Source of the DNA: Streptomyces sp. B21-083
Lineage (GTDB): Bacteria; Actinomycetota; Actinomycetes; Streptomycetales; Streptomycetaceae
DNA: 64,000 nt
Reading direction: 5' to 3'
Assembly (NCBI RefSeq): GCF_036898825.1
Contig: NZ_JARUND010000001.1
Location: forward strand, 4,092,001 to 4,156,000
The notes beneath the pieces were generated by a model that searched no databases, was not told where the DNA came from, and was given only the letters and a program-made list of their open reading frames with translations. Below, one piece after another: positions 1-63,349 of this stretch. Position 1 is the first letter of the stretch, and the number at the start of each line of letters is the position of its first letter. Position numbers and translations under genes: made by a program.

Positions 1-3000
1 TCGCGTCGGTGGGTGCCTCGTCCTGCGCCCAGGTGCCGACGGTCGTGGTGTCCATCTTGTAGGGGGCAGCGGTGCCGGAGAGCGGTACGTCGTAGACGAC
101 GGTGGTGGCCGCCGTGCCGGAGGTGGTGCTCATGGAGCCTTCGGCGAGTGCCGGGCGGGAGGCCTTGAGCAGCATGCCGGTGCCCGAGGTCAGTGCGGAG
201 CCGGCCGTGCCGTAGGTGAAGGTCCAGGGGAGTTCACCGGGCCGGGTGTAGGTGGCGACGCGGCCGTTGGTGTCATAGGTGTACTCCGTCTTCAGCGCGG
301 GGCTGATCCGGGGGTCCCACACTTGGCGGAGCTGGCCGGAGGCGTTGTAGGCGTACGAGGCGATCGTTTCGGACGTCGAGGCGGAGGCGGGGGTGGTGGC
401 GTTGGGAGTGGTGGCCCACAGGTTGACCGACGCGACCTGGCCCGCGTAGTTGCCGAGCGTGCTGGAAGTGGCGGTGGTGGCGGGCGCGTAGACGTACTCC
501 AGGACGCGGCAGCCCTTGGTGGCCGGGGTGGCCTGGCAGGTGGCCGCGGTGACCGCGCCGGTCGGGGAGATCACGTACTTCGGGCGGGCCAGCGTCTTGC
601 CGCCGACCGTGACCGTCTCCGAGGCGACGGTGACAGTGGTGTCGTCGACCGCTGTCGCCGAGGAGGCGAGCGTCCAGGTGGCCACGCCGGTGGCCGTCTT
701 GGTGAACACCGTGGTGTTGGCGTCGGTGTCGGTGAGGGTGAACGAGGCCCCGGACAGGGTGCCCGTCAGGGTGAGGAGCTCGGCGCCGGTCTCCGGCTGC
801 CAGCTGTCTGAGCCGGTGGCGGTGAAGGCGACCGAACTGCCGTCCGCGTGCAGCAGTTCCACCGAGGTGTCGGAGGTCTTGCGGATCTGCGTGTAGTCGC
901 TGCCGGCGGCGTCGATCGAGGAGGTCCAGCCGGGGCCGAAGATGGCCGCTTGGCCCTCGGCGTCGGTGCTGTTGGCGCGCGAGGAGTACATGCGCTCCAC
1001 GCTCGCGCTGAACGCGGCGGCATCCGTGGCCGAAAGGGTGTAGTTGCCGGTCAGCTGGTTCACGGAACCCGGGCCGACCTGGGCGCTGGGGGCGGTGCCC
1101 GCGTCCCGGTCCAGGGTGACCTCGGTGGTCTGGGAGTAGCCGGTGGTGGTGCCGTCGGTGAACGCGGCCCGTAGCTGGATCACGCCGTCCTCGGCGAGGC
1201 TGGAGACGGTGTTCCACACCAGCTTGGTGGCGGCGCCGCCAGTGACGGCGACCGGCCAGGCGGAGACGGCGGCGCCGGCGGCGGTCACGTCACCGACCGG
1301 CACGGTGTGCCAGGAGTCGGTTTCACCGCGTCGGTATTGCCAGGTCACCCCGGTGTAGGTGGGGAAGCCCTTGGCGGACAGCGTCAGTCGGCGTGCTGTG
1401 GTGTCACCGTCGGAAGGGGAGAGGATCGAGGCCCCGTCGGCGCCGACACCGAACGAGTAGGAGGTGGTGGCCGTCGACAGGTTGCCGCCGGAGTCGATCG
1501 TGCGGGCGTACAGCGTGTGCCAGCCGTTGGCCGGGTTGATGCTGATGGTCTGCGCGTCGCCGCCGGTGCCGTCGGTGGTGTCCAGTTTCTTGTTCGGCAG
1601 GGACGCGTCGTCCAGGCCCCACTGGAAACCGGCACCGTCCGTGGACGTGGTGTCGAGCGTGCAGGACACGGCGGCCGAGGCCTTGGCAGTCCAGTCGTTC
1701 TGGGTGTAGGTGTCACACGTGACGGTCGGAGCGTTCGGCTTGTCCGTGTCCATGGTGAACGTGGTGTAGCCGGTCCAGGAGCCGTAGTCGGTCCCGTCGT
1801 AGGCGCGCACCCGGTAGCGCAGGTGCTTGCCCGCCGGCAGCGCGCTGGCCGAGGGCACGGTCAGATTCGCCGTGGAACCGGAGGCCACCGCGGCGGAGGT
1901 GGCGGTGTAGGAGTACGTGGTGTCGGCGTAGGCCGGATCGGCGGTGACCTCGAACTGGCCGCGGGTGCTGGACCCGTCCGGGTCGGTCACCTTCGCCGAC
2001 AGCGTCGGGGTGAGCGAGGTCGCGTACCGGACGCCGTTGACCTGCGACGGTGCAATCGCCACCGAAGTCGGCTTCGTGGGGTACGAGTTGTAGGTCACCG
2101 TCAGCTTCGGGGCGTAGCCGGTGGTGGTGTAGTTGGCGGAGCGGAAGCGGCGCCAGGTGGTGGAGTCGGTTTCGCTGGTGCCGTAGACCATGAGGCCGTA
2201 GTTGGTGGCGCCGTCGGCCCAGGCCTGGACGATGGCGTCGATGTCCCAGTTGGACCAGGCGGCCGGGCAGGCCGAGGAGTAGCCGCGCGGCACCAGGTTG
2301 TTGACGGCGCCGGTCCCGGAGGAGGAGGGGCGGGTGCCCCAGGTCAGCGAGGTCGAGGACCAGTCGGAGGTGATGCGGCGGACCGTGGTGCCGGCTCCGT
2401 TGGTGGCACAGGTCGAGGAGTAGTAGCTGTAGAGGGCGAAGTTGGTGTCGGTGATGTGCTTGCCGGCGAACTTCGACATGTCGAACTTCAGGTACGAACG
2501 CGCCAGGTCCGCGCCGGCGTCGTAGGTGCCCGACTTCAGCTCCTGGGAGGAGACCTGCGAGTCCGGGTAGTCCGGGGTCTGGATCCATGTGTCCGTGGTC
2601 ACCGCGAGGGTGGACGTCGGGTCGACCGTCACCGGATAGGTGAGGGCGGGATCGGCGAGGAAGTCCGCGTCCGGGGTCAGGACCAGCGTCTGCGCGCCGT
2701 CGGTGGCAGTCTCGACCTTCGTGTCGACCCGGGCCTGGTACTCCGGTTCACCTGAGGAATCGTTTCTGCTGGAGTCCCACATCATGGGTGCCGGGGCCTC
2801 GGCGACCAGCTTGCCGCCGGAGTCCTTGAGCAGCAGATGTCCGGACTCGGCCTGGGACAGTTTCAGCCCGTCCAGGTGCATCGGAATCCGGTACGACACC
2901 GCACTGTCCGGCGCCTGGTCGAGGATGACGTTCTGGGAGAAGCCCTGCGCCAGCGCGCTGACCGTCAGCGTCTGCCCGTCGCCCAGGTCGTAGGAGGCCG

Positions 3001-3568
3001 TGTTGTCCTTGACCGTAGGGGTGGGGAGCTTGTCCTCCCAGCCCATCCCAAAGGACGTCTCCCCCTTCGACACCGATGCCAGCGCCGTGTCGCCGCCGTC
3101 CGAGACGGAGATGTCGGCGACCGTGGCCTCCGGGGTCAGGCTGGACCCGGTGTCGGACAGCGAGGTGTCGATGTCCTTCCAGGCTCCTTCCTGCTTCACC
3201 CGGACCGGACCGGCGAACGCCTCCGTCTGCAACTCCCCGGACGGCAAGGCGTATGTCGTCGAATCCGCGGTCCGCTCCGACAGCACCTCAATCTTGCGGT
3301 CCTGCAACCGCGCCATCAACAGCGCCGACGCGCCATCGGTCGCCTCCGGGGGTCCCAACACCTTCGCCAGCTTCGACGTCGTCGTGGTCGTGGAGGATTC
3401 GGCGGCGGTGACGGCTATCGCCTGCCCAGCCAACTCCACGACCATGGCCGTCTCAACAGCCAGTAGCAGCGACAGCGCCCCCGCTATCTGGCGCAATCGT
3501 CTGCCCGCCCGGAGCTCGGCGGACGCACTGAACGGACCGGGAGGCCCGCTAGTAAACCAAGAACCCAT
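1..3568 (-). CDS. Secreted RHS/YD-repeat protein, 5' part (copy A)
   Basis: Partial: the 3' end lies beyond the left edge. The frame stays in register from the ATG at 3568 (GAAGGGG Shine-Dalgarno just upstream) to base 1, about 1189 codons. The N-terminus has an arginine-rich stretch followed by a hydrophobic segment, as in a signal peptide. A DNRLRE-type region (residues ~320-490, ending in TDSTTWRRFRSANYTTTGY) and beta-sandwich linkers follow, then the first YD repeats near the left edge. It aligns throughout with the complete gene at 52065-58223, with equivalent positions almost equally far from the start and long stretches that look about 90 percent identical in DNA. Inferred: polymorphic-toxin or cell-wall-associated RHS protein; the toxin tip is not visible here. 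Confidence 0.85.
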   Translation of the reverse strand, partial: MGSWFTSGPPGPFSASAELRAGRRLRQIAGALSLLLAVETAMVVELAGQAIAVTAAESSTTTTTSKLAKVLGPPEATDGASALLMARLQDRKIEVLSERTADSTTYALPSGELQTEAFAGPVRVKQEGAWKDIDTSLSDTGSSLTPEATVADISVSDGGDTALASVSKGETSFGMGWEDKLPTPTVKDNTASYDLGDGQTLTVSALAQGFSQNVILDQAPDSAVSYRIPMHLDGLKLSQAESGHLLLKDSGGKLVAEAPAPMMWDSSRNDSSGEPEYQARVDTKVETATDGAQTLVLTPDADFLADPALTYPVTVDPTSTLAVTTDTWIQTPDYPDSQVSSQELKSGTYDAGADLARSYLKFDMSKFAGKHITDTNFALYSYYSSTCATNGAGTTVRRITSDWSSTSLTWGTRPSSSGTGAVNNLVPRGYSSACPAAWSNWDIDAIVQAWADGATNYGLMVYGTSETDSTTWRRFRSANYTTTGYAPKLTVTYNSYPTKPTSVAIAPSQVNGVRYATSLTPTLSAKVTDPDGSSTRGQFEVTADPAYADTTYSYTATSAAVASGSTANLTVPSASALPAGKHLRYRVRAYDGTDYGSWTGYTTFTMDTDKPNAPTVTCDTYTQNDWTAKASAAVSCTLDTTSTDGAGFQWGLDDASLPNKKLDTTDGTGGDAQTISINPANGWHTLYARTIDSGGNLSTATTSYSFGVGADGASILSPSDGDTTARRLTLSAKGFPTYTGVTWQYRRGETDSWHTVPVGDVTAAGAAVSAWPVAVTGGAATKLVWNTVSSLAEDGVIQLRAAFTDGTTTGYSQTTEVTLDRDAGTAPSAQVGPGSVNQLTGNYTLSATDAAAFSASVERMYSSRANSTDAEGQAAIFGPGWTSSIDAAGSDYTQIRKTSDTSVELLHADGSSVAFTATGSDSWQPETGAELLTLTGTLSGASFTLTDTDANTTVFTKTATGVATWTLASSATAVDDTTVTVASETVTVGGKTLARPKYVISPTGAVTAATCQATPATKGCRVLEYVYAPATTATSSTLGNYAGQVASVNLWATTPNATTPASASTSETIASYAYNASGQLRQVWDPRISPALKTEYTYDTNGRVATYTRPGELPWTFTYGTAGSALTSGTGMLLKASRPALAEGSMSTTSGTAATTVVYDVPLSGTAAPYKMDTTTVGTWAQDEAPTDA

Positions 3569-52050: not shown

Positions 52051-52064
52051 GGAGGAAAGTGACT

Positions 52065-55000
52065 GTGCGTCACAGACCCAGGGTTTTTCAGAACCCCCGG
52101 CCAGGACGTGTCCACCGGCCCCGTCGCCACTACCGTTCCCGTCGACTGCGGCAGACAGCCCTCGTCACACTGATGGCCCTGGCAGCCGAGACCGCTCTGG
52201 TCGCGGGCAGCAGCGGGCTGGCGTTCGCCAGCGACGCGACGGGCGCGACGGCGAAGGCGAAGGCGTCCGCCGGGAAGGCCCTTGGGCCCGCCCAGGTGCA
52301 GGACGAGGCCTCCGCCATGCTGATGGCCCGGCTCCAGCACCGGAAGATAGAGATCCTGTCCGACCGTACGACGGACTCGTCGACGTTCGCACTGGCGAGC
52401 GGGGAACTGCAGACGCAGGCGTACGCCGGGCCGGTTCGGACGAAGGTGGACGGCGTCTGGAAGAACATCGACACCTCGCTCTCCGACACCGGCGCCGATC
52501 TCACGCCCGCTGCCGCGCCCGCCGATGTGGCCGTCTCCGACGGCGGGGACACGCACCTGGCGTCGGTGAGCAAGGGCAAGCAGTCCTTCGGCCTCGGCTG
52601 GGCGGCCAAGCTGCCCACGCCGTCCGTGAAGGCCAACACCGCGTCCTACGCGCTCGGCAGCGGCCAGACCCTGTCGGTCAGCGCGCTCGCGCAGGGCTTC
52701 TCCGAGAACATCCGGCTGGCCCGCAAGCCCGCCGACGGGGCGGTCACCTACCGCATCCCGATGAACCTGGCCGGGCTGAAGCTGTCCCGCGCCGCCTCCG
52801 GGCACCTGCTGCTGAACGACACCAGCGGCAAGCTGGTCGCCGAGGCGCCCGCGCCGATGATGTGGGACGCCAGCCTGGACAAGGCCTCCGGTGAGTCCGC
52901 GCACCAGGAGCAGGTGGCGACGAAGGTCGAGACGGCCGCCGACGGCAGCCAGACCCTCGTCCTGACCCCGGACACGTCCTTCCTGGCCACCGCGACCTAC
53001 CCGGTGACCGTCGACCCCACCACCACCCTCGCCGTCACCACCGACACCTGGGTGCAGAACCCCGACTACCCCGACTCCCAGATCAGCTCGGAGGAGCTGA
53101 AGTCGGGGACGTACGACGGCGGGAGCGACACCGCGCGCTCGTATCTGAAGTTCGACGTGTCGAAGTTCGTGGGCAAGCACATCACCGCCGCGAACCTGTC
53201 GCTGTACAACTACTACTCGGCCACGTGCTCGACCTCAGGTCCGGCCACGCTCGCCAAGCGGGTCACCTCCACCTGGACCTCCTCCGCGATCACCTGGGGT
53301 GCGCAGCCGACCACCACGACGACCGGTGACGCCTCCAACACCGGGCACTGGGGCTTCGACTCGACCTGCGCGGCGAACTGGTCGAACTGGAACCTCCAGG
53401 CGATCACCCAGGCGTGGGCGGACGGTTCGACCAACCAGGGCGTCCAGATCGCGGGCGCGTCCGAGACGGACTCCACCACCTGGCGGCGCTTCCGCTCGGC
53501 GAACTACTCGACGTCCGGGTATGCGCCGAAACTGTCGGTGACCTACAACTCGTACCCGGCGGTGCCGGCGAGCACGGCCATCACGCCCTCGCAGGTCAAC
53601 GCCTACAACGGCAAGCGGTACGTCACCTCGCTCACCCCGACGCTCTCGTCGAAGGTGACGGACGCGGACGGGGCCAACGCCCAGGCGCAGTACGAGATCA
53701 CGCCGGATCCGGTGTATGCCGACACCACGTACACGAACACCGGGTACGGCACGACGGTGGCCTCCGGTTCCACTTCGACCCGGGCCATTCCGTCCGCCTC
53801 GGCCTTCCCCGCGGGCAGCCATCTGCGCTACCGGGTACGGGCGTACGACGGTACGGACTTCGGTGCCTGGTCCGGTTACACGACGTTCGTGCTGAACACG
53901 GCCAAGCCGGCCGCGCCGACCGTCACCTGTGACACGTACACGCAGAACGGTTGGACCGCCAAGGCCTCCGCGGCCGTGAACTGCACCCTGTCCACCGCCG
54001 CCACCGACGGAGCCGGCTTCCAGTGGGGCCTGGACGACGCGTCCATGCCGAACAAGAAGCTCGACACCACCAACGGCACCGGCGGCGACGCCCAGACCGT
54101 CAGCATCAACCCGGCCAACGGCTGGCACACGCTGTACGCGCGCACCATCGACTCCGGCGGCAACCTCTCCACCGCCACCACCTCCTACAGCTTCGGCGTC
54201 GGTACGGACGGCGCCGCGATCCTGTCCCCGCGGGAAGACACCACCACCGCGCGACGGCTCACCCTCAATGCCAGGGGTCTGACCTCGTACACCGGTGTGA
54301 CCTGGCAGTACCGGCGGGGCGAGACAGACACCTGGCACACCGTGCCCGTCGCTGACGTGACCGCCTCCGGTTCCGCCGTCTCCGCCTGGCCCGTCGCCGT
54401 CAGCGGCGGTACCACCACCAGCCTGGTGTGGAACACCGTCGCCAGCCTCACCGAGGACGGCGTCATCCAGTTGCGCGCCGCCTTCACCGACGGCACCACC
54501 ACCGGCTACTCGCAGACCGTCGACAGCACCCTGGACCGCGACGCGGGCACCGCGCCGAGCGCCGAGGTCGGGCCGGGCACGGTCAACGAACTCACGGGTG
54601 ACTACACGCTGAACGCCACCGACGCCGCGGCGTTCGCGGCCGACGTGGAGCGCACCTTCTCCTCGCGTGCGAACAGCAACGACTCCGAAGGCCAGGCCCA
54701 GATCTTCGGGCCTGGCTGGACTTCGTCCGTCTCGGCCGAGTCGAGCGAGTACACCCAGATCCGCAAGACCTCCGCCGCCTCCGTAGAACTGCTGTCCGGC
54801 GACGGCAGCTCGGTCGCCTTCACCGCGACGTCGAACGGCGGCTGGCAGCCGCAGGCCGACGACGCCGACCTGACGCTGACAGGCAGCCTGACCGGTACGG
54901 CGTTCACGCTGAACGACACCGACGCCGACACCACGGTGTTCACCAAGGCGGCCGCCGCGGCGACGACCTGGACGCTGTCCTCCTCCGCCACGGCGGTCGA

Positions 55001-58000
55001 CAACAGCACCGTCACGGTCACCTCCGAGACGGTCACCTCGGGCAGCAGCACGCTGGCCCGTCCGAAGTACGTGATCTCCCCGACCGGCGCCGTCACCGCG
55101 GCCACCTGCCAGGCAAACCCGGCCACCAAGGGCTGCCGCGTCCTGGAGTTCGTCTACGCGACCTCCACCACGGCCACTTCCGGCGCGGTCGGCGACTACA
55201 CCGGCCAGGTCAAGGCGCTCAAGCTGTGGGCCACCAGCCCCGGCGGCTCCGCCTCGACCGCCGAGACGGTCGAGTCCTACGCGTACGACAGCTCCGGGCG
55301 GCTCGCCCAGGCCTGGGACCCGCGCATCAGCCCCGCGCTGAAGACGGCGTACACCTACGACACCGACGGCCGCGTCGCCACGTACACCCCGCCCGGCGAG
55401 TTGCCCTGGACGTTCACCTACGGCAAGGCCGGGTCGGCCCTGACCTCGGGTACGGGCATGCTGCTGAAGGCCTCCCGCCCGGCACTCGTCACGGGCTCCG
55501 CGAGCACCACGTCCGGCACGGCGGCCACCACCGTCGTCTACGACGTGCCGCTCTCCGGCACCACCGCCCCGCACCAGATGGACGCCACGACCACGGCGAC
55601 CTGGGCTCAGGCCGAGGCACCGACCGACGCGACCGCGATCTTCCCGGCGGACTCCGTCCCCACCTCCAGCACCGGCAGCGACCTGACCGCCACCTCGTAC
55701 GGCCGGGCCACTGTCACCTACATCGACGCGAACGGGGAGGAGACCAACTCCGCGAGCCCCGGCGGCGGCATCACCACCACCGAGCGCGACGTGTTCGGCA
55801 ACACCACCGCACAGCTCACCGCCGCCAACCGCGCGCTGGCGCTGAGCAGTTCGTCCGACGAGCTGACCGAGCTGGGCCTGGACGTCCTGTCCACGGCCGA
55901 CCGCGCCCAGCAGCTGGCCACCGTCTCGGAGTACTCGGCCGACGGCACACGCGTCACCGACATCTACGGGCCGCTGCACCAGGTCACCCTCGCCCACACA
56001 CTGACCGGCTCCACCAGCGAGTCCACCCAGCCCGCCGGCTCGGTGGTCCCCGCCCGCAGCCACACCGCGCTCACCTACGACGCCAACCGTCCCGGTGACG
56101 CCGCGGTCTCCGGTCTGCTCACCTCCAAGGTGACGGGCGCGGCGCTCCCGGGCTACGCCACCGACGCCGACACCAGCACGGTGACCTACACCTACGACTG
56201 GGCGACGGGGCAGCAGAAGTCCGCCACGGGCGGCACGAGCACCGACGTCGTCGCCACCTACGACAGCGTCGGCCGGGTGGCGAGCACCCGCACCGCGGGC
56301 TCCTCCGGCTCGGACGCGGACACGCTGAACAGCACGTACTACAGCGCGTCCGCCACGGGCACCTGCGCCTCCACGGAGTGGGACGGCCTGCTGTGCCGGA
56401 CCGCTCCCGCGTCGTCGATCAGCGGCGGCGGCAGCAATCCGTCCGACGCCGTCACCACGGTCTACACGTACGGCCGCTGGGGCCAGGTCGCGACCAAGGC
56501 CGAGACCGCGAACGGCGTCACCCGTACGACCACCACCACGGTGGACTCGGCGGGCCGCGGCACCGGAACAGCGATCACCGGCGGCACGGGCACGGCCACA
56601 CCGGCCACCACGACGGCCTACGACCAGGACACCGGTCAGGTCGCCACCCAGTCGTCCAACGGCCAGACCGTCACCTACGGCTACGACGACCTGGGCCGTC
56701 AGATCTCCTACGCCGACGGCTCGGGCAACACCACGACCACCTCGTACGACGTCCTGGACCGCCCGGTCACGCGCGGTGACTCGGCACCGTCCACGGTGAC
56801 GTACGCCTACAACACCGTGGGAACCATCGGCACCGTGACCGACTCGGTGGCGGGCGCCTTCTCCGGCACCTACGACGCCGACGGCACCCTGACCTCCGAG
56901 ACCCTGCCCGGCGGTTACACGCTGACCGTGGGCACGGACCCGGCGGGGCAGGTGACGGGCCGTTCCTACACCAAGTCCGACGGCACCACGGTCTCCTCCG
57001 ACACCGCCGACTACACGGTCGACGGCCGCCGGGCCGACCACACGCAGACCGACGGCACCAGCGTCCGGTCCGCCTACACCTACGACACTGCCGGCCGCCT
57101 CACCCAGGCCGCCGATTCCACCACGAACGGCTGCACGACCCGCGCGTACACCTTCGACGCGAGCAGCAACCGCACGGCGCTGACGACCACGTCCGACGAC
57201 TGCGACAGCAGCACCGCCGACGCCACCACGGCCACCGCGTCGTACACCTACGACACGGCCGACCGTCTGGTGAACAGCGGTTACGTCTACGACGCCTTCG
57301 GCCGCACCACCACCAGCGGCAGCACGGCGCTGGCCTACTACACCAACGACCGGGTCGCCACCGAGACCCTCGGCACCAGCCGCAACACCTGGGCCCTGGA
57401 CGCCGCCGGACGCCTCGCCGTCCAGAACGCCCAGACCCAGGCCACCGGCGGCACCTGGACCACCGGCTCCACCACGACCAGCCACTACGCCGACCCGTCG
57501 GACAGCCCCTCCTGGAGCGTGAGCGGCGGCACGGTCGCCCGATACGTGCATGACCTCACCGGGGGGCTCGCCGCTACGACCACGGCGTCCGGCGCGGTCG
57601 TCCTCCAACTGTCCGACCTGCACGGCGACATCACCGTGCAGCAGCCGCTGGACACCACGGTGGCCACCACCGTGCGCCACTACGACGAGTACGGCAACGT
57701 GCTCGCCGACTCCACGGACGGCACCGGTTACGACTGGCTGGGCGCCCACCAGCGCTCGGGCAACATGCTCAGCGGCTACACCCTCATGGGCCTGCGGCTC
57801 TACGACCCCACGACCGGTCGTTTCCTGAGCCGGGACGCCCTCTACGGCGGCAACTCCAACGCCTACGACTACTGCTCCGGCAATCCGGTCACCTGCCTCG
57901 ACCTCTCCGGTCTCAGCAAGCACAACTACAACAAGCACGGCTGGCACTGGTGGGGCTACGAGATGGACATGACCAACCACCGGGGGTGGGTCGTGGTCAA

Positions 58001-58223
58001 CCGGTTCAACGAGCACGCCGCGGGAACCGCCCTGGTCGCCGCCATGATCGGCGCCTACGCTTGGGCGACGGGTGTGGGAGCGCTGGCAGCCGCGCTCGGT
58101 GCGGTCTTCGCCGCCTACTACTGGTACATGAGTGCCAGGATGCAGTCGGTGCTGTACGCCAATCCTCACCGGGGAGTGAAGCTCAAGATCGTCTTCGGCT
58201 ACCCCAGCATCAGCAGGGAGTGA
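52065..58223 (+). CDS. Secreted RHS/YD-repeat protein with hydrophobic C-terminal tip (copy B)
   Basis: 2052 residues; GTG 52065 is 9 nt from GGAGG, GTG 52059 only 3 nt. Basic stretch plus hydrophobic core (TALVTLMALAAETALVAGSS) is a signal peptide. DNRLRE region at ~325-490; beta-sandwich modules to ~830; RHS entry module (ELTGDYTLNATDAAAF, VERTFSSRANSN, IFGPGWTSS); YD repeats from ~1065 (YAYDSSGRL, YTYDTDGRV, YGYDDLGRQ); core end YTLMGLRLYDPTTGRFLSRD...NAYDYCSGNPVTCLDLSGL at ~1900-1950. After GLS a ~104-residue tip (HGWHWWGYEMDM...) has two adjacent hydrophobic helices (GTALVAAMIGAYAWATGVGA, ALGAVFAAYYWYM). Inferred polymorphic toxin with a membrane-active tip. Confidence 0.9.
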   Translation: MRHRPRVFQNPRPGRVHRPRRHYRSRRLRQTALVTLMALAAETALVAGSSGLAFASDATGATAKAKASAGKALGPAQVQDEASAMLMARLQHRKIEILSDRTTDSSTFALASGELQTQAYAGPVRTKVDGVWKNIDTSLSDTGADLTPAAAPADVAVSDGGDTHLASVSKGKQSFGLGWAAKLPTPSVKANTASYALGSGQTLSVSALAQGFSENIRLARKPADGAVTYRIPMNLAGLKLSRAASGHLLLNDTSGKLVAEAPAPMMWDASLDKASGESAHQEQVATKVETAADGSQTLVLTPDTSFLATATYPVTVDPTTTLAVTTDTWVQNPDYPDSQISSEELKSGTYDGGSDTARSYLKFDVSKFVGKHITAANLSLYNYYSATCSTSGPATLAKRVTSTWTSSAITWGAQPTTTTTGDASNTGHWGFDSTCAANWSNWNLQAITQAWADGSTNQGVQIAGASETDSTTWRRFRSANYSTSGYAPKLSVTYNSYPAVPASTAITPSQVNAYNGKRYVTSLTPTLSSKVTDADGANAQAQYEITPDPVYADTTYTNTGYGTTVASGSTSTRAIPSASAFPAGSHLRYRVRAYDGTDFGAWSGYTTFVLNTAKPAAPTVTCDTYTQNGWTAKASAAVNCTLSTAATDGAGFQWGLDDASMPNKKLDTTNGTGGDAQTVSINPANGWHTLYARTIDSGGNLSTATTSYSFGVGTDGAAILSPREDTTTARRLTLNARGLTSYTGVTWQYRRGETDTWHTVPVADVTASGSAVSAWPVAVSGGTTTSLVWNTVASLTEDGVIQLRAAFTDGTTTGYSQTVDSTLDRDAGTAPSAEVGPGTVNELTGDYTLNATDAAAFAADVERTFSSRANSNDSEGQAQIFGPGWTSSVSAESSEYTQIRKTSAASVELLSGDGSSVAFTATSNGGWQPQADDADLTLTGSLTGTAFTLNDTDADTTVFTKAAAAATTWTLSSSATAVDNSTVTVTSETVTSGSSTLARPKYVISPTGAVTAATCQANPATKGCRVLEFVYATSTTATSGAVGDYTGQVKALKLWATSPGGSASTAETVESYAYDSSGRLAQAWDPRISPALKTAYTYDTDGRVATYTPPGELPWTFTYGKAGSALTSGTGMLLKASRPALVTGSASTTSGTAATTVVYDVPLSGTTAPHQMDATTTATWAQAEAPTDATAIFPADSVPTSSTGSDLTATSYGRATVTYIDANGEETNSASPGGGITTTERDVFGNTTAQLTAANRALALSSSSDELTELGLDVLSTADRAQQLATVSEYSADGTRVTDIYGPLHQVTLAHTLTGSTSESTQPAGSVVPARSHTALTYDANRPGDAAVSGLLTSKVTGAALPGYATDADTSTVTYTYDWATGQQKSATGGTSTDVVATYDSVGRVASTRTAGSSGSDADTLNSTYYSASATGTCASTEWDGLLCRTAPASSISGGGSNPSDAVTTVYTYGRWGQVATKAETANGVTRTTTTTVDSAGRGTGTAITGGTGTATPATTTAYDQDTGQVATQSSNGQTVTYGYDDLGRQISYADGSGNTTTTSYDVLDRPVTRGDSAPSTVTYAYNTVGTIGTVTDSVAGAFSGTYDADGTLTSETLPGGYTLTVGTDPAGQVTGRSYTKSDGTTVSSDTADYTVDGRRADHTQTDGTSVRSAYTYDTAGRLTQAADSTTNGCTTRAYTFDASSNRTALTTTSDDCDSSTADATTATASYTYDTADRLVNSGYVYDAFGRTTTSGSTALAYYTNDRVATETLGTSRNTWALDAAGRLAVQNAQTQATGGTWTTGSTTTSHYADPSDSPSWSVSGGTVARYVHDLTGGLAATTTASGAVVLQLSDLHGDITVQQPLDTTVATTVRHYDEYGNVLADSTDGTGYDWLGAHQRSGNMLSGYTLMGLRLYDPTTGRFLSRDALYGGNSNAYDYCSGNPVTCLDLSGLSKHNYNKHGWHWWGYEMDMTNHRGWVVVNRFNEHAAGTALVAAMIGAYAWATGVGALAAALGAVFAAYYWYMSARMQSVLYANPHRGVKLKIVFGYPSISRE

Positions 58224-58225
58224 AC

Positions 58226-58516
58226 GTGAACAGGGTTGTGGACTACACCGCCTTCGCGCTGGGCTGCGTGCTCACGCTGACGGGGCTGGTCTCCGTCCTC
58301 TCCGGCCGGGCACCGTCCTGGCTGCGACACGTCGACCGGCCCCGGCTGTTCGGCGTGTGGGCAATGTGCCTCGGCCTCTTCTGCGTCACCCAGCTGCCGG
58401 TGCTGCGCGACGAGGTGGTCCGCCTCGGCTCGGCAGCGGTGGACGCCCGCGTCGCGTTGCTGCTCGTGTCGGCGGCGGCGCTGCTGCTGGGGCTGCGGAG
58501 GACACGAGGTCAGTAG
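58226..58516 (+). CDS. Small membrane protein, putative immunity partner of the RHS tip
   Basis: 96 residues from GTG 58226, 2 nt after the RHS stop, with CAGGGAG overlapping the RHS end as ribosome site. Three hydrophobic segments: YTAFALGCVLTLTGLVSVLS, LFGVWAMCLGLFCVTQL and VALLLVSAAALLLGL. No known domain recognised. Tight linkage, small size and membrane topology opposite a hydrophobic toxin tip fit an immunity protein, by analogy with RHS/CDI systems. Could also be a DUF-type membrane protein with no such role. The transcript ends at the hairpin 58519-58554. Confidence 0.75.
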   Translation: MNRVVDYTAFALGCVLTLTGLVSVLSGRAPSWLRHVDRPRLFGVWAMCLGLFCVTQLPVLRDEVVRLGSAAVDARVALLLVSAAALLLGLRRTRGQ

Positions 58517-58518
58517 TG

Positions 58519-58554
58519 GCTGTGGGCGGACGCCGGCCGGCCTCCGCCCACAGC
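58519..58554. terminator. Hairpin terminator of the RHS operon
   Basis: 12-bp stem GCTGTGGGCGGA / TCCGCCCACAGC, 3 bp after the last stop codon. Also stands between convergent transcription units. Confidence 0.85.
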
Positions 58555-58609
58555 GGTTCTCTCGGTATCCAGGGCGTCTTCCCGGTTGGGGAGGCGCCCT
58601 TCCGTCCGG

Positions 58610-59029
58610 TCAGCCCGCCGCCGGTGGTGCGGCATGCAGCTGGCGTACCAGCTGCGGGGTGAGGAGTTCGCCCGCGCGGTCGGCGAGGACGGCCATCTCG
58701 TAGCCGACCAGGCCCACGTCGCAGCCCTCGGCGGCCAGGACGCCCAGGCAGCTGCCGTCGCGGATGCGGCCGACCATGAGGAAGCCGCCGAGCATTTCGA
58801 TCATGACGAGCTTCATGCCCCGGAAGCCGTGTGTCGTCGCCGCGTTCTGGGCGAGGCTGGTGATGCCGGAGACGACGGCGGCGAGGTGGTCGGCGCGGTC
58901 TCGGCCGAGGTTGTCGGAGGCGGCCATGAGGAGGCCGTCGGAGGAGACGGCGACCGCGTCGGTGACGCCGTCGGCGGTGCGGACGAACTCCGAGACGAGC
59001 CAGCCGAAACTCTGGACGGCGGTGGTCAC
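58610..59029 (-). CDS. Roadblock/LC7-domain protein (CvnB-type)
   Basis: 139 residues from GTG 59029, overlapping the kinase stop by 4 nt (GTGA). Roadblock fold: SFGWLVSEFVRTADGVTDAVAVSSDGLLMAASDNLGRDRADHLAAVVSGITSLAQNAATTHGFRGMKLVMIEMLGGFLMVGRIRDGSCLGVLAAEGCDVGLVGYEMAVL. In conservons this protein links the kinase CvnA to the GTPase CvnD. Here the usual DUF742 and GTPase genes are missing: the stop is followed by the RHS terminator. Confidence 0.92.
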   Translation of the reverse strand: MTTAVQSFGWLVSEFVRTADGVTDAVAVSSDGLLMAASDNLGRDRADHLAAVVSGITSLAQNAATTHGFRGMKLVMIEMLGGFLMVGRIRDGSCLGVLAAEGCDVGLVGYEMAVLADRAGELLTPQLVRQLHAAPPAAG

Positions 59030-61251
59030 GATGACGCTCCTTGGGTGCTTCGGGGTGTGCTTCGGGCCTCGGCGCGGGCGACACCTGCTCGGAAGCCGTT
59101 GAGCAGGGAGGAGACAGCGGGACGTGCGGTGGGCGGGGTCGGCGGCCCCGACGGGGGTGCGGACGGGGGTGCCGCGAGGATCTGCTGGGTCTGTGCGGGG
59201 GCGAGCAGGCGGCCGGGCAGGACGAGGAGTGCGGACAGGCCGCCGCCCGGGGTGTCGAAGAGGTGGACCTTCGTGCCGTCGCCGAGGCGGTCGGTGAGCC
59301 GGCCGACGACGAGATGGCCGAGGAAGCGGGTGGGGGCGGCGAGGAAGGCGTCCTCGCCGGAGCCGGAGAGGCGTTCGCCCGCGCGTTCCTTGTCGGTCGC
59401 GGACATCCCGACGCCGTGGTCGACGACGGCGAAGCTGTACGTGTCGTCGTCGGTGTCGTACCAGCCGTGCACCTCGACCCGCTCGTTCGGCGGCGAGAAC
59501 GTCAGCCCGTTCTCGATGAGTTCGGCGAGGAGATGGGCGACATCGGCAACGGCGTGGCCTCGGACGCGCACCGGTTCCACGGCCGCGATCAGGACCCTCC
59601 GGTACTGCTCCACCTCGGCGACGGCCGACTGGACGACTTCCAGGCCGTCGGCGGGCGCCGCCGTGGCCCGGGGCGGATTCTGTCCGGCCAGGACCAGCAG
59701 GCTTTCGGCGTTGCGCCGCATCCGGGTGGCGAGGTGGTCGAGTTCGAAGAGCTCGGCGAGGGCGTCCGGGTCGAGTTCCTGCCGTTCCAGGCGCGTGATG
59801 AGACCGAGCTGCCGGCGTACGAGATTCTGGTTGCGGCGGCCGAGGTTGGCGAGCGACTCGGTGGTGTTGCGGCGCAGGCCGGCCTGCTGGGCGGCCAGTT
59901 GGAGGGCGGTGTGTTCCACCAGGCGCAGTGACTCCGCGACTTCGGTGATCTCCGCCGCGCCGCCCAGTGCTCGCGCCTCGGGGAACTCCACCTGGTCCTG
60001 CGGTGACTGCTGGATCCGGGCGACCGTCGCGGGCAGCCGGTGCCGGGCCACGTCGTGGGCCGCCTCGGCGAGGGCGCCGAGCGGGCGGGTGAGGGAACGC
60101 GAGGCGAAAGCGGCGAGGCCCGCCACGAGGGCGGCCATGAGCGTGCCCGCCAGGAGGTAAGCGGCGAGGGCGAGTTCGGCGTCGTGACTGAGGCGGTCGG
60201 CCCGGTCCCGTACGTCGTCACCGACCGACTGCTGGACGGCGTACAGATCGTCTACGAGCACGGTCATCCCGTCCCACCAGGTGCCGGCGTCGACGCGCAG
60301 CGCGGAGCCGTCGGCGGCGCCCTCCGCCCGGGTCTCGTAGGTGGTGGCGCGTTCGGCGTCCTCCGTGGCGAACGCGTGCTTCAGGGCGGTGAGTTGGGGC
60401 GCGGTCGCGACCTCCCGGAAGCGGGCGAGGGCGGCGACACGGGCCGCGCGCACCTCCGTGAAGGTGAGGTACTCGCGGCCGTGGAAGGCACCCTCGGCGA
60501 ACACGCCGTTGAGGAGGCCTCGTTCGAGGGCGACGGACTCCTTGGCGGTGGCCAGTTCCCGCAACGCGTCCAGCCCGTCCCGCAGTTGGCGGTCGGCGCT
60601 GGAGGCGGTGTCCGCCACCGGGTCGACGTCGTTGAGGGCGTCCACGGCGGCGGTGTAGAAGGTGAGGGTGGCGGTGCGGTCGGCGGTGGCCTTTCCCCCG
60701 GCCGCTCTGTCGGCGGCGGCTCGGACGGCGGCGAGGCGGCGCAGGTACCGCTGGATGACGTTCTGCACCGCCTGTTCGGGGCGCATCGCGCGCAGCGCCG
60801 TGTCGACCCGTCCGCGAGTGGCGGTGAGTTGTGTGCGGTAGCTCTTCTCGCCGCCCAACAGGCCGTTCGTCAGGCCGCGTTCACGCTGCAGCTGGTGCAC
60901 CAGCGCCTGGACGCGCAGGCTGAGGCCGACCTCGTCCCGGGTGGTCCGGGCATCGCCGAGCGCCTCCGCGCGGCCGTACACGGCCAGTCCGGCGACCGTC
61001 AGCAGCAGGCAGATCGGGACGGTGATGACCACCGCCACCCGGCCCCGGATGCTGCGCCAGCCGGGCAGCGGACGGCGGCCGGGAGTCGTTCGGCCACGGT
61101 GACGTTGTCCCGAACCCGCACGGGAACCGGCTTTCCCGGAAGGGCCGTTGCCGACTACGCCGAGCCTGCCAGGCCGGACGGAACCGCCAAACCGCCTGCC
61201 AAGCCTGTCGAGCACCTCGAACAGCGGCCGAAATGGCGTCCACACCCTCAT
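59026..61251 (-). CDS. Nitrate/nitrite-sensor-like histidine kinase (CvnA-type)
   Basis: 741 residues from ATG 61251. Long basic N-tail; TM1 at ~70-92 (VAVVITVPICLLLTVAGLAVYG); extracellular NIT domain (~95-340: VHQLQRERGLTNGLLGG..., LERGLLNGVFAEGAFHGREYLTF); TM2 (LAAYLLAGTLMAALVAGLAAF); HAMP; dimerisation helices with ELDHLATRMRRNAESLLVLAG; HATPase_c with N-box LLAELIENGLTFSPP and G1 VVDHGVGMS. The C-terminus is Pro/Ala-rich. Conservon-type sensor kinase, translationally coupled to the roadblock gene. Confidence 0.93.
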   Translation of the reverse strand: MRVWTPFRPLFEVLDRLGRRFGGSVRPGRLGVVGNGPSGKAGSRAGSGQRHRGRTTPGRRPLPGWRSIRGRVAVVITVPICLLLTVAGLAVYGRAEALGDARTTRDEVGLSLRVQALVHQLQRERGLTNGLLGGEKSYRTQLTATRGRVDTALRAMRPEQAVQNVIQRYLRRLAAVRAAADRAAGGKATADRTATLTFYTAAVDALNDVDPVADTASSADRQLRDGLDALRELATAKESVALERGLLNGVFAEGAFHGREYLTFTEVRAARVAALARFREVATAPQLTALKHAFATEDAERATTYETRAEGAADGSALRVDAGTWWDGMTVLVDDLYAVQQSVGDDVRDRADRLSHDAELALAAYLLAGTLMAALVAGLAAFASRSLTRPLGALAEAAHDVARHRLPATVARIQQSPQDQVEFPEARALGGAAEITEVAESLRLVEHTALQLAAQQAGLRRNTTESLANLGRRNQNLVRRQLGLITRLERQELDPDALAELFELDHLATRMRRNAESLLVLAGQNPPRATAAPADGLEVVQSAVAEVEQYRRVLIAAVEPVRVRGHAVADVAHLLAELIENGLTFSPPNERVEVHGWYDTDDDTYSFAVVDHGVGMSATDKERAGERLSGSGEDAFLAAPTRFLGHLVVGRLTDRLGDGTKVHLFDTPGGGLSALLVLPGRLLAPAQTQQILAAPPSAPPSGPPTPPTARPAVSSLLNGFRAGVARAEARSTPRSTQGASS

Positions 61252-61678: not shown

Positions 61679-63349
61679 TCAACTCGTCGTACAGGTCGTG
61701 CCGTTGAGGGTGAAGGTGGTGGGCGCCGGGTTCGTCGCCCCCTTCGTCCCGATGAAGCCGACCGAGACCGAGCCGGCGGCCGGGATCGTGGCCGTGTAGG
61801 AGGCGGGTACGACGCTCACGTCGGCGCCGCTCTGCGTGGGCGTCCCGCCCCACATGTTGTTGATGGTCTGGCCGCCCGCGAAGCTGAAGCCCAGCGTCCA
61901 GGTGGTCAGGGCGGTGGTGCCCGTGTTGCGCAGGGTGATGTCGCCCTGGAAACCGCCCTGCCAGTCGCCGACGACCCGGTAGGCGACGGAGCAGCTGATC
62001 CCGGGGGTGCCGCCGCCCGGGGACGTGGTGACGTTCACCGTGGCCGAGCGGGTCGAGCGGTTGCCGGCCGCGTCCCGTGCGTACACGGCGAAGGTGTAGG
62101 CCGTGGCCGCGGTGAGGCCGGTGACCGTGACGGTGTTGGTGGTGGAGGCGGCGGCCGTGGTCTCCGTACCGCCGCTCACGCGGACGACGTCGTAGCCGGC
62201 GACGCCAACGTTGTCAGTGGCCGCCGCCCAGGTCAGGGTGGTCGACGTGGCCGTGGTTCCGGACGCGTTGGGGGTGCCGGGGGCGGTCGGGGCCTGGGTG
62301 TCGGTGCCCGTGCCGCCGCCGTAGACCGTGGCTTCCCGGGACGTCTGGGCGATGCCGTTGGCGCCGTTGAAGATGCGCTGGCCCCAGGAGCTGAGCTGCT
62401 TGGGGTCGAAGCCGATCGACAGGTCGAGGACCGGGTCCGTGTTGCCGCTCCACGACCAGGCCAGGTAACCCAGCTTCAGCTGCTGGGCGGTCGCCATCAT
62501 CGTGTCCTCGTCAGGGTCGCCGTACTGGTCGGCCGGACCACCGAACTCACCGATCAGGATGGGGAGTTTGGCCGTGACGAAGGCGTTCAGGTAGTCGGTG
62601 ATCTCCGCCGCCGTGTCGAAGACGCTGTACATGTGGATGGAGAAGATCAGGTTGCCGGTGGTGTCGGCGTTGTACACGGACTGGGCGTTGGCGCGCATGA
62701 CACCCTGCCAGTCCTGACCCCAGTTGGGCGCGTCCACCATGATCGTGTGCTGGAAACCGGCGGCACGCAGTTTCTGTACGGCGGCGATCGTGGGGGCGGT
62801 CCAGCCGGCCGGGTCGGTGTTGCCCCAGGGCTCGTTGCCGATGTTGATGACGACGTAGTCCTCTTGGCCGGCGAGCACGCTCTTGAGACCGATCCAGTAG
62901 TCGGCGGCCTGGTCGAGTGTCCCGGCGGCGGCCTCCTCGCCGTAGCCGGTGGTGTCGTGCACCTCCAGTACGCAGATCAGGCGGTTCGCCTTGCACTGCG
63001 CGACGATCGCGGCGACTTCGTCGGCGGTGTTCCTGGTCCAGCGATGCCCGTCGGCGAGGACGACCCGGACGGTGTTGGCGCCCAACGCCTTGACGTCCCT
63101 GAGGGATTGGGTCTGGGTCGGGTACCAGGTGTAGGCGTGGTTGACGCCCCGCATCACGAAGTCGTTGCCGTTGCCTTCGAGGAGACGGCCGTTGGAGATG
63201 TGCAGGCCGGCGGCCGCGACGGCACGGGGTGGCTCGGCCTGCGCCTGGGCGGGGCTCGGGGCGAGCACCAGGAGGCCTAGGAGGGTGACCAAGGCGGTCA
63301 GCAGGATGGTCAGAGGGCTCTTTCGCGTGGTGCTTCTCGTTGTTCTCAC
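61679..63349 (-). CDS. Secreted GH5 beta-mannanase with Fn3 and CBM2
   Basis: 556 residues from GTG 63349 (GGAG). Signal peptide to ~36 (LTILLTALVTLLGLLVLAPSPAQAQA). GH5 domain ~45-340: LHISNGRLLEGNGNDFVMRGVNHAYTWYP, LEVHDTTGYG, acid/base Glu in INIGNEPWGN, FSIHMYSVFD, nucleophile Glu in ILIGEFGG, LGYLAWSWSGN. The pattern is that of GH5 subfamily 8 mannanases such as S. lividans ManA, as I recall. Fn3 ~360-450, then CBM2 ~460-556 (CSVAYRVVGDWQGGFQGDITLRNTG...W). Degrades mannan, and binds cellulose through the CBM. A CebR-type operator is upstream. Confidence 0.93.
   Translation of the reverse strand: MRTTRSTTRKSPLTILLTALVTLLGLLVLAPSPAQAQAEPPRAVAAAGLHISNGRLLEGNGNDFVMRGVNHAYTWYPTQTQSLRDVKALGANTVRVVLADGHRWTRNTADEVAAIVAQCKANRLICVLEVHDTTGYGEEAAAGTLDQAADYWIGLKSVLAGQEDYVVINIGNEPWGNTDPAGWTAPTIAAVQKLRAAGFQHTIMVDAPNWGQDWQGVMRANAQSVYNADTTGNLIFSIHMYSVFDTAAEITDYLNAFVTAKLPILIGEFGGPADQYGDPDEDTMMATAQQLKLGYLAWSWSGNTDPVLDLSIGFDPKQLSSWGQRIFNGANGIAQTSREATVYGGGTGTDTQAPTAPGTPNASGTTATSTTLTWAAATDNVGVAGYDVVRVSGGTETTAAASTTNTVTVTGLTAATAYTFAVYARDAAGNRSTRSATVNVTTSPGGGTPGISCSVAYRVVGDWQGGFQGDITLRNTGTTALTTWTLGFSFAGGQTINNMWGGTPTQSGADVSVVPASYTATIPAAGSVSVGFIGTKGATNPAPTTFTLNGTTCTTS

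What the first reader, a model, noticed from the sequence alone, without database searches (positions are those of the whole stretch)
57910..58516. RHS tip plus downstream small membrane protein: candidate toxin-immunity pair acting at the membrane
After the RHS core end (DLSGL) a roughly 104-residue tip with a Trp/His-rich start and two adjacent hydrophobic helices is followed after only 2 nt by a 96-residue, three-helix membrane protein, then a terminator. Most known RHS tips are nucleases, deaminases or ADP-ribosyl transferases. A short hydrophobic tip with a membrane-spanning partner suggests a pore-forming or envelope-directed effector in a Gram-positive secreted RHS. I recognise neither sequence.
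Basis: partly seen in the sequence, partly recalled or inferred. Interest (0 to 1): 0.8.

Follow-up and report, generated by a model that had tools for sequence, protein, structure and literature searches.

The report
Streptomyces RHS membrane-toxin tip and immunity
A giant secreted-type Streptomyces protein ends in a 102-residue tip predicted to fold around a membrane-seeking helical hairpin, followed by a small membrane protein that probably protects the producer; it looks like a new family of a known kind of bacterial weapon.

Summary
A 2054-aa RHS protein (52059-58223) ends in a 102-aa tip (57915-58223). Two bases later a 96-aa three-helix membrane protein begins (58226-58516), followed by strong hairpins without a T run. 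Neither matches a Pfam or NCBIfam family. Relatives of the tip are rare (profile: 5 of 392 genus and 8 of 394 family genomes) and sit at RHS ends or on short orphan fragments. A 16-row alignment gives a fairly confident model: beta-hairpin, long Ala/Gly-rich alpha-hairpin, beta-hairpin. Best reading: a polymorphic RHS toxin that inserts in the membrane of competing bacteria, plus a membrane immunity protein. For: divergent tips (36-62% identical) keep a homologous three-helix partner in 4 of 5 loci read, and a related tip clade carries an unrelated four-helix partner. Against: one intact relative has no adjacent partner, stand-alone relatives of the partner exist, and the hairpin's hydropathy is only moderate. 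No toxicity was tested; pore formation is inferred. Pore-forming RHS tips with membrane immunity are already known (Tse5/Tsi5), so this is a new family of a known kind, here on a Gram-positive, WapA-like RHS.

The parts
52059..58223 (+). RHS polymorphic-toxin carrier protein, 2054 aa, with a Sec-type signal-like N-terminus (read by eye)
   Evidence: DNRLRE and Rhs_assc_core models above their cut-offs. The exact start codon is uncertain; the database version is 2016 aa.
53040..53543 (+). DNRLRE / CBM96 domain (residues 328-495 by NF033679)
   Evidence: 110.4 bits, cut-off 34; PF24517, 45.7 bits, cut-off 26
57681..57914 (+). RHS-associated core end (residues 1875-1952) with Asp1926 and Asp1948 22 residues apart, ending DLSGL
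   Evidence: TIGR03696 48.6 bits, cut-off 32.5; spacing as in the DPXGX18DPXG autoprotease motif described in PMC10684867 (passages)
57915..58223 (+). toxin tip, 102 aa plus stop; predicted beta-hairpin / alpha-hairpin / beta-hairpin
57975..58070 (+). first long helix of the tip (tip residues 21-52)
   Evidence: AlphaFold2 model, mean pLDDT 80.7
58080..58160 (+). second long helix of the tip (tip residues 56-82)
58226..58516 (+). candidate immunity protein, 96 aa, three membrane helices
   Evidence: AlphaFold2 model pLDDT 78.9, pTM 0.60, helices 2-26, 39-54, 58-67, 69-90
58519..58554 (.). hairpin after the immunity gene, terminator-like without T run
58571..58600 (.). second hairpin, next to the end of the convergent minus-strand gene

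Best explanation
The tip is the toxic end of a secreted, surface-type RHS polymorphic toxin of Streptomyces, and the 96-aa protein is its cognate membrane immunity protein. Proposed working: the RHS protein is exported and its barrel holds the tip. Self-cleavage after DLSGL frees the 102-aa tip at a competitor. The tip inserts its long Ala/Gly-rich alpha-hairpin into the competitor's cytoplasmic membrane and dissipates the membrane potential, as an ion channel or pore. The producer is protected because the three-helix protein sits in its own membrane and blocks insertion or assembly. Shown: gene anatomy, family relationships, different tips on paralogues, frequent adjacency of the partner, predicted folds. 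Inferred: export, self-cleavage, toxicity, pore formation, immunity.
For: (1) Carrier is an RHS protein with DNRLRE domain and core. (2) A paralogue in the same genome is 58-72% identical region by region through the core and 28% in the tip, the usual mark of a polymorphic toxin. (3) Partner adjacency in DNA that I read, clade A: window, S. geranii L014, Actinacidiphila cocklensis L015, Streptomyces sp. CB01373 L016; partner identities to the window's 54, 25, 29%, tip identities 62, 43, 36%. Gaps 2, 4 or 10, 122 and 68 nt. Same contig, by strain name and contig length, in NPDC001220 and NPDC057428; neighbouring locus tags in NPDC005474 with a tip fragment. (4) The S. geranii copy is a 145-aa orphan module (short core fragment + tip) with its partner, as in displaced 'Rhs orphan' pairs (PMC12704120, passages). 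(5) Clade B tips are homologous to clade A (hhalign 97.1%, E 5e-11), yet their downstream protein is a four-helix membrane protein with no detectable relation to the clade-A partner (hhalign 0.2%): open in 3 of 5 loci, interrupted or a fused remnant in the other 2. (6) Background: 3 of 44 small genes and 31 of 213 genes in 20 sampled stretches of this genome have two or more hydrophobic segments (crude gene caller). (7) Tip model: helices of 32 and 27 residues between beta-hairpins; no Lys, Arg, Asp or Glu between tip positions 36 and 74 and net charge +5 in the window's tip.
Against: L029 (G858) has an intact tip and no membrane ORF in the 1.5 kb read downstream; the only relative of the partner found in that genome is 2.4 Mb away. 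One search found no partner for the strains of P0004-P0006, and searches found no tip for the strains of P0010, P0014, P0015, P0017, all on long contigs (those searches have limited reach, so these are not firm absences). The partner belongs to a wider family of three-helix proteins that are not next to RHS genes. Clade-B gaps are 129 and 239 nt in the two loci measured, wider than in the window. The tip's hydropathy is moderate: best 19-residue mean 1.69 in the window's tip, whole-helix means 0.28 and 0.98. No GxxxG in the window's tip by reading; small-x3-small pairs exceed shuffles in only some members (p 0.004 to 0.85 in 7 tips). No fold match with E <= 0.001 for either model. Tip and partner co-divergence has 5 points and is not significant (rho 0.8, p 0.10).
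Confidence: 0.62

Rival explanations
1. Enzymatic toxin: the His/Trp-rich start (H3, N4, N6, H8, H11, E16, D18) is a catalytic or metal site, and the hydrophobic hairpin only carries it into or across the membrane; the membrane partner blocks entry.
For: These residues are invariant among the seven clade-A tips and invariant or nearly so; N4 and N6 are also kept in the clade-B rows.
Against: The His and Asp residues are not kept in the homologous clades B and C, where Cys and basic residues stand instead. The segment is a short predicted beta-hairpin. No enzyme family matched.
Confidence: 0.13
2. Not a toxin: the hydrophobic tip anchors the RHS protein in the producer's own membrane, or helps its export, and the small membrane protein is a partner in that.
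For: The tip is hydrophobic and the next gene encodes a membrane protein; neither was assayed.
Against: The same-genome paralogue has a quite different tip, without such a hairpin by eye, on a similar body. An orphan tip-plus-partner fragment exists. Related tips have unrelated membrane partners.
Confidence: 0.1
3. Tip is a toxin, but the 96-aa protein is an unrelated small membrane protein of a scattered three-helix family that lies next to it by chance; immunity lies elsewhere.
For: Relatives of the 96-aa protein occur alone, and one intact tip lacks it.
Against: Adjacency in 4 of 5 clade-A loci read, across tips 36-62% identical to the window's; 2-nt spacing in the window. Stand-alone relatives may be orphan immunity genes, as reported for ExiCD (PMC12744356, passages).
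Confidence: 0.08

Closest known systems
Tse5 / Tsi5 (RHS pore-forming effector of the H1-T6SS of Pseudomonas aeruginosa; PMC9637101 and PMC10684867, passages)
   Same: RHS carrier; C-terminal toxin released by self-cleavage that inserts in membranes; small integral-membrane immunity protein.
   Different: T6SS delivery, against a Sec-signal-like start and DNRLRE domain here; Tsi5 has two predicted membrane helices against three; no sequence relation seen.
CDI ionophore toxins with CdiI (PMC11630599, abstract and two result sections)
   Same: C-terminal depolarising toxins of polymorphic carriers; small hydrophobic membrane immunity proteins (72-100 residues); strong divergence of pairs.
   Different: Five-helix bundle with a GxxxGxxxG zipper; here one alpha-hairpin between beta-hairpins, and no GxxxG. 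CdiI is a two-helix hairpin.
EsxX / ExiCD of the staphylococcal T7SS (PMC12744356, passages)
   Same: Gram-positive, secreted, membrane-depolarising C-terminus; polytopic membrane immunity; immunity genes also found as orphans.
   Different: LXG carrier, glycine zipper, two-protein membrane immunity plus soluble cytoplasmic immunity.
Tox-WTIP (Zhang et al. 2012, PMC3482391, passages)
   Same: Short polymorphic-toxin tip of two predicted membrane helices, thought to form pores.
   Different: RxxR in helix 1 and Wx[ST]IP in helix 2 are absent here; described there as restricted to proteobacteria.
WapA-type RHS proteins (S. suis WapA, PMC12704120, passages)
   Same: Gram-positive carrier with signal peptide, DNRLRE domain, RHS domains, variable C-terminus; orphan toxin/immunity pairs.
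   Different: A carrier family; whether any tip there resembles this one was not checked.

Membership tests
RHS polymorphic toxin | RHS-associated core domain before the tip | tested here: met
   TIGR03696, 48.6 bits over cut-off 32.5, residues 1875-1952
RHS polymorphic toxin | Same body, different tips | tested here: met
   Same-genome paralogue 58-72% identical per region to residue 1951, 28% in the tip
RHS polymorphic toxin | DPXGX18DPXG-type aspartyl autoprotease motif before the tip | tested here: inconclusive
   Both Asp at the right spacing (22) in the window and in 8 of 8 relatives checked, but the prolines are missing in nearly all
RHS polymorphic toxin | Adjacent cognate immunity gene | tested here: inconclusive
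   Adjacent in 4 of 5 clade-A loci read; function untested
RHS polymorphic toxin | Export signal | not tested
   Basic then hydrophobic N-terminus by eye; no predictor was run
RHS polymorphic toxin | Tip toxic, neutralised by partner | not testable with these tools
   needs expression assay
CDI ionophore family | GxxxGxxxG zipper in a five-helix bundle | tested here: not met
   Two helices in the model; no GxxxG in the window's tip by reading
Tox-WTIP | RxxR in helix 1, Wx[ST]IP in helix 2 | tested here: not met
   Neither motif in the helices by reading; motif definition from PMC3482391
Tse5-CT | Sequence or fold relation to Tse5-CT | tested here: inconclusive
   Profile against PDB chains gave one match, E 0.32, not Tse5; no fold match with E <= 0.001. 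Whether the toxin part is held in any chain was not checked.

The most novel reading that the evidence does not exclude
One small toxin scaffold (beta-hairpin / long alpha-hairpin / beta-hairpin, about 100 aa) has radiated on Streptomycetaceae RHS proteins into at least three, perhaps four, clades, and each clade has recruited its own unrelated membrane immunity protein. The clade-A immunity was recruited from, or has shed, a scattered stand-alone family of three-helix proteins, some of which may be orphan immunity genes that protect non-producers.
Probability: 0.4. Interest if true: 0.6.

Novelty: new variant of a known kind. Interest (0 to 1): 0.5.

Why it matters
The pore-forming RHS tip with experiments that I found (Tse5) is from a Gram-negative T6SS. 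A Gram-positive, WapA-like RHS with a 102-aa membrane tip and a 96-aa membrane immunity protein is small enough to express, reconstitute and model as a pair. Clades A and B share one toxin scaffold but have unrelated membrane partners, which makes it possible to ask directly how membrane immunity arises and how specific it is.

Tried and rejected

Phylum-wide profile search: 3 of 396 genomes matched, the own genome included; the other two lie in a short-chain dehydrogenase-like and a membrane transferase-like frame (recognised by eye) and were dropped. Clade D (L035) is a weak case: hhalign supports it against A (91.8%) and C (86.0%) but not B (1.2%), on a single sequence. hhalign values are single-pair comparisons of hydrophobic proteins; the A/B partner comparison (0.2%) shows that two membrane families need not align. 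Resemblance of the Cys-containing start of clades B and C to class IIa bacteriocins is recalled only; no model supported it.
Full report
Observation. The RHS gene runs from 52059 to 58223 and its product ends in DLSGL (residues 1948-1952) plus a 102-aa tip (57915-58220, stop to 58223). A GTG two bases after the stop opens a 96-aa protein to 58516. Third-position GC is 0.90 and 0.92. Two hairpins follow at 58519-58554 and 58571-58600 (z -5.3), without the T run a simple terminator scan looks for.

Carrier. NCBIfam finds a DNRLRE domain (residues 328-495, 110.4 bits) and an RHS-associated core (1875-1952, 48.6 bits). The N-terminus has a basic stretch and then a hydrophobic stretch ending AFA, which by eye is a Sec signal (no predictor run). 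Asp1926 and Asp1948 lie 22 apart, as in the DPXGX18DPXG aspartyl autoprotease of other RHS proteins; in Tse5 the cut follows the Leu after the second motif (PMC10684867, passages). The prolines are missing in nearly all rows here, so cleavage after DLSGL is likely, not shown. 8 of 8 relatives checked keep both Asp.

Tip relatives. A search with the tip region found 7 proteins with E <= 0.1, the window's own included; the other six are 50-91% identical in the tip, and the five that carry a name are Streptomyces. A profile of ten tips found 8 short proteins with E <= 0.01, among them orphan tip fragments (P0018, P0020, P0025) and clade-B forms. Single-sequence genome search: 2 of 392 genus genomes, the own one included, for the tip and 3 of 392 for the partner. 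Profile of the tip: 5 of 392 genus genomes and 8 of 394 family genomes, of which four are clade A (own genome, G858, G830, G1010). Phylum: 3 of 396, two of them false. The scan of genome contigs gave 3 loci, L014-L016. The family is therefore rare and, as far as seen, confined to Streptomycetaceae.

Clades. Clade A tips begin SKHNYN. Clade B tips begin AKYNKN or close variants with Cys (G094, G290, G839; truncated or remnant in G166 and G978). Clade C (G030, G989) has KNYNKT/KKYNKT with two Cys. A further single case, D (G894), is weaker. hhalign: A-B 97.1%, A-C 91.2%, B-C 96.5%, A-D 91.8%, C-D 86.0%, B-D 1.2%. Shared features are the N-terminal segment, the hydrophobic alpha-hairpin, and a final GVKL/GTKI-type strand ending in E or Q.

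Partners. Clade A: the window, L014, L015 and L016 have a homologous three-helix protein directly downstream (gaps 2, 4 or 10, 122 and 68 nt). L030 and L031 repeat the tips of L015 and L016 letter for letter and are not counted again. L029, whose tip equals that of P0007, has none: a hairpin-like repeat and a convergent frame follow, and the only three-helix relative found in that genome is 2.4 Mb away. So 4 of 5. Of the ten small-protein hits, P0010, P0014, P0015 and P0017 are on long contigs where no tip was found; P0008, P0009, P0016 are on short contigs and cannot be judged. P0004-P0006 have tips and no partner was found. Those searches have limited reach, so these are open. Clade B: a four-helix protein of 121-145 aa follows in G094, G290 and G166 (the G166 tip has lost its start). 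In G839 the tip frame is cut short and the partner frame has a stop; in G978 the start of a tip is fused to the end of a partner. It shows no relation to the clade-A partner (hhalign 0.2%). Clade C: small ORFs of 73 and 94 aa, 34% identical over 61 residues (E 0.007); the 94-aa one has two hydrophobic segments at my threshold, the 73-aa one none. D: 121 aa, three segments. In 20 sampled stretches of the own genome 3 of 44 small genes and 31 of 213 genes have two or more such segments (crude gene caller), so a run of membrane partners is more than chance gives, though the number of independent clades is small.

Wider family of the partner. The clade-A partner profile also hits stand-alone three-helix proteins (E limit 0.1): one in the own genome (G000:C1:3410788, E 4.8e-4), one in G858 (4.5e-6), one in G094 (8.0e-6), and weak ones in G830 (0.026) and G1083 (0.032). 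A profile of four of these aligns with the partner profile over nearly its whole length (96.1%, E 3.1e-9; without the divergent clade-A members 87.0%, E 4.1e-6). The stand-alone family is scattered: the own genome and 3 of 20 other relatives. None of five copies inspected within about 1.5 kb is next to an RHS tip. G022 carries a closer relative (38% identical) and G143 another, with no tip found in those genomes at the sensitivity used. These could be orphan immunity genes, as for ExiCD (PMC12744356, passages), or a separate membrane family from which immunity was recruited.

Polymorphism. The same-genome paralogue (partly in this window, positions 1-3541, minus strand) is 70, 72, 64 and 58% identical in successive regions and 28% in the tip; its tip shows no such hydrophobic hairpin by eye, and a 209-aa ORF, soluble-looking by eye, follows. 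The S. geranii copy is an orphan fragment with partner. Both are marks of RHS/WapA systems (PMC12704120, passages).

Structure. Tip model (16 rows, query DLSGL plus tip): mean pLDDT 80.7, pTM 0.68, first nine residues below 50; in tip numbering strands 8-11 and 14-19, helices 21-52 and 56-82, strands 88-93 and 96-101. Partner model (13 rows): pLDDT 78.9, pTM 0.60, helices 2-26, 39-54, 58-67, 69-90. No significant fold match for either. Tip positions 36-74 carry no Lys, Arg, Asp or Glu in the window's tip, an aromatic cluster (YYWY) lies in helix 2, and net charge is +5. The hydropathy is moderate (best 19-residue mean 1.69), so membrane insertion is a prediction with room for doubt.

Mechanism. 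A membrane-seeking hairpin with a membrane immunity protein fits depolarising toxins: Tse5/Tsi5 (PMC9637101, passages), CDI ionophores with CdiI (PMC11630599, abstract and two sections), EsxX. I put about 0.8 on a toxin-immunity pair, 0.7 on action at the membrane, 0.55-0.6 on a pore or ion channel. An enzymatic site in the His/Trp-rich start is less likely because the homologous clades lack its His and Asp residues.

Novelty. Five paper searches (20 of 234, 20 of 107, 15 of 191, 12 of 19 and 6 of 6 papers listed) showed no title or abstract start on this tip or on a pore-forming RHS tip of Streptomyces. I read only those listings and the named passages and sections, and most subscription papers are not held. 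The kind of system is known; the family, the fold arrangement and the set of alternative membrane partners appear undescribed on that evidence. Overall: a new variant of a known kind, moderately interesting.

Noticed in passing
window 1-3541 (minus strand), continuing to G000:C1:4089680 (locus L002): Second RHS gene about 50 kb away, similar body, different tip, and a 209-aa ORF downstream that may be its immunity gene.
   Followed up: partly
G000:C1:3410764-3411063 (locus L044; also L041): Stand-alone three-helix protein in the same genome, related to the immunity candidate; scattered copies in other Streptomyces, two of them (L045, L047) near transposase-like frames by eye.
   Followed up: partly
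L034 (G978): Remnant in which the start of a clade-B tip is fused to the end of a clade-B partner, as if a deletion removed the middle of the pair.
   Followed up: no
L029 (G858): Intact clade-A RHS tip without an adjacent immunity candidate.
   Followed up: partly
window 58610-61251, minus strand: Roadblock/LC7 protein and a NIT-domain histidine kinase-like protein, convergent with the pair (conservon-like, name recalled).
   Followed up: no
window 61679-63349, minus strand: GH5 cellulase with fn3 and CBM2 domains.
   Followed up: no
L020, L033, L017, L018: Clade B and C tips start with a Tyr-Asn-rich segment and two Cys 5-7 residues apart, recalling class IIa bacteriocins (recalled); no model supports it.
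   Followed up: partly
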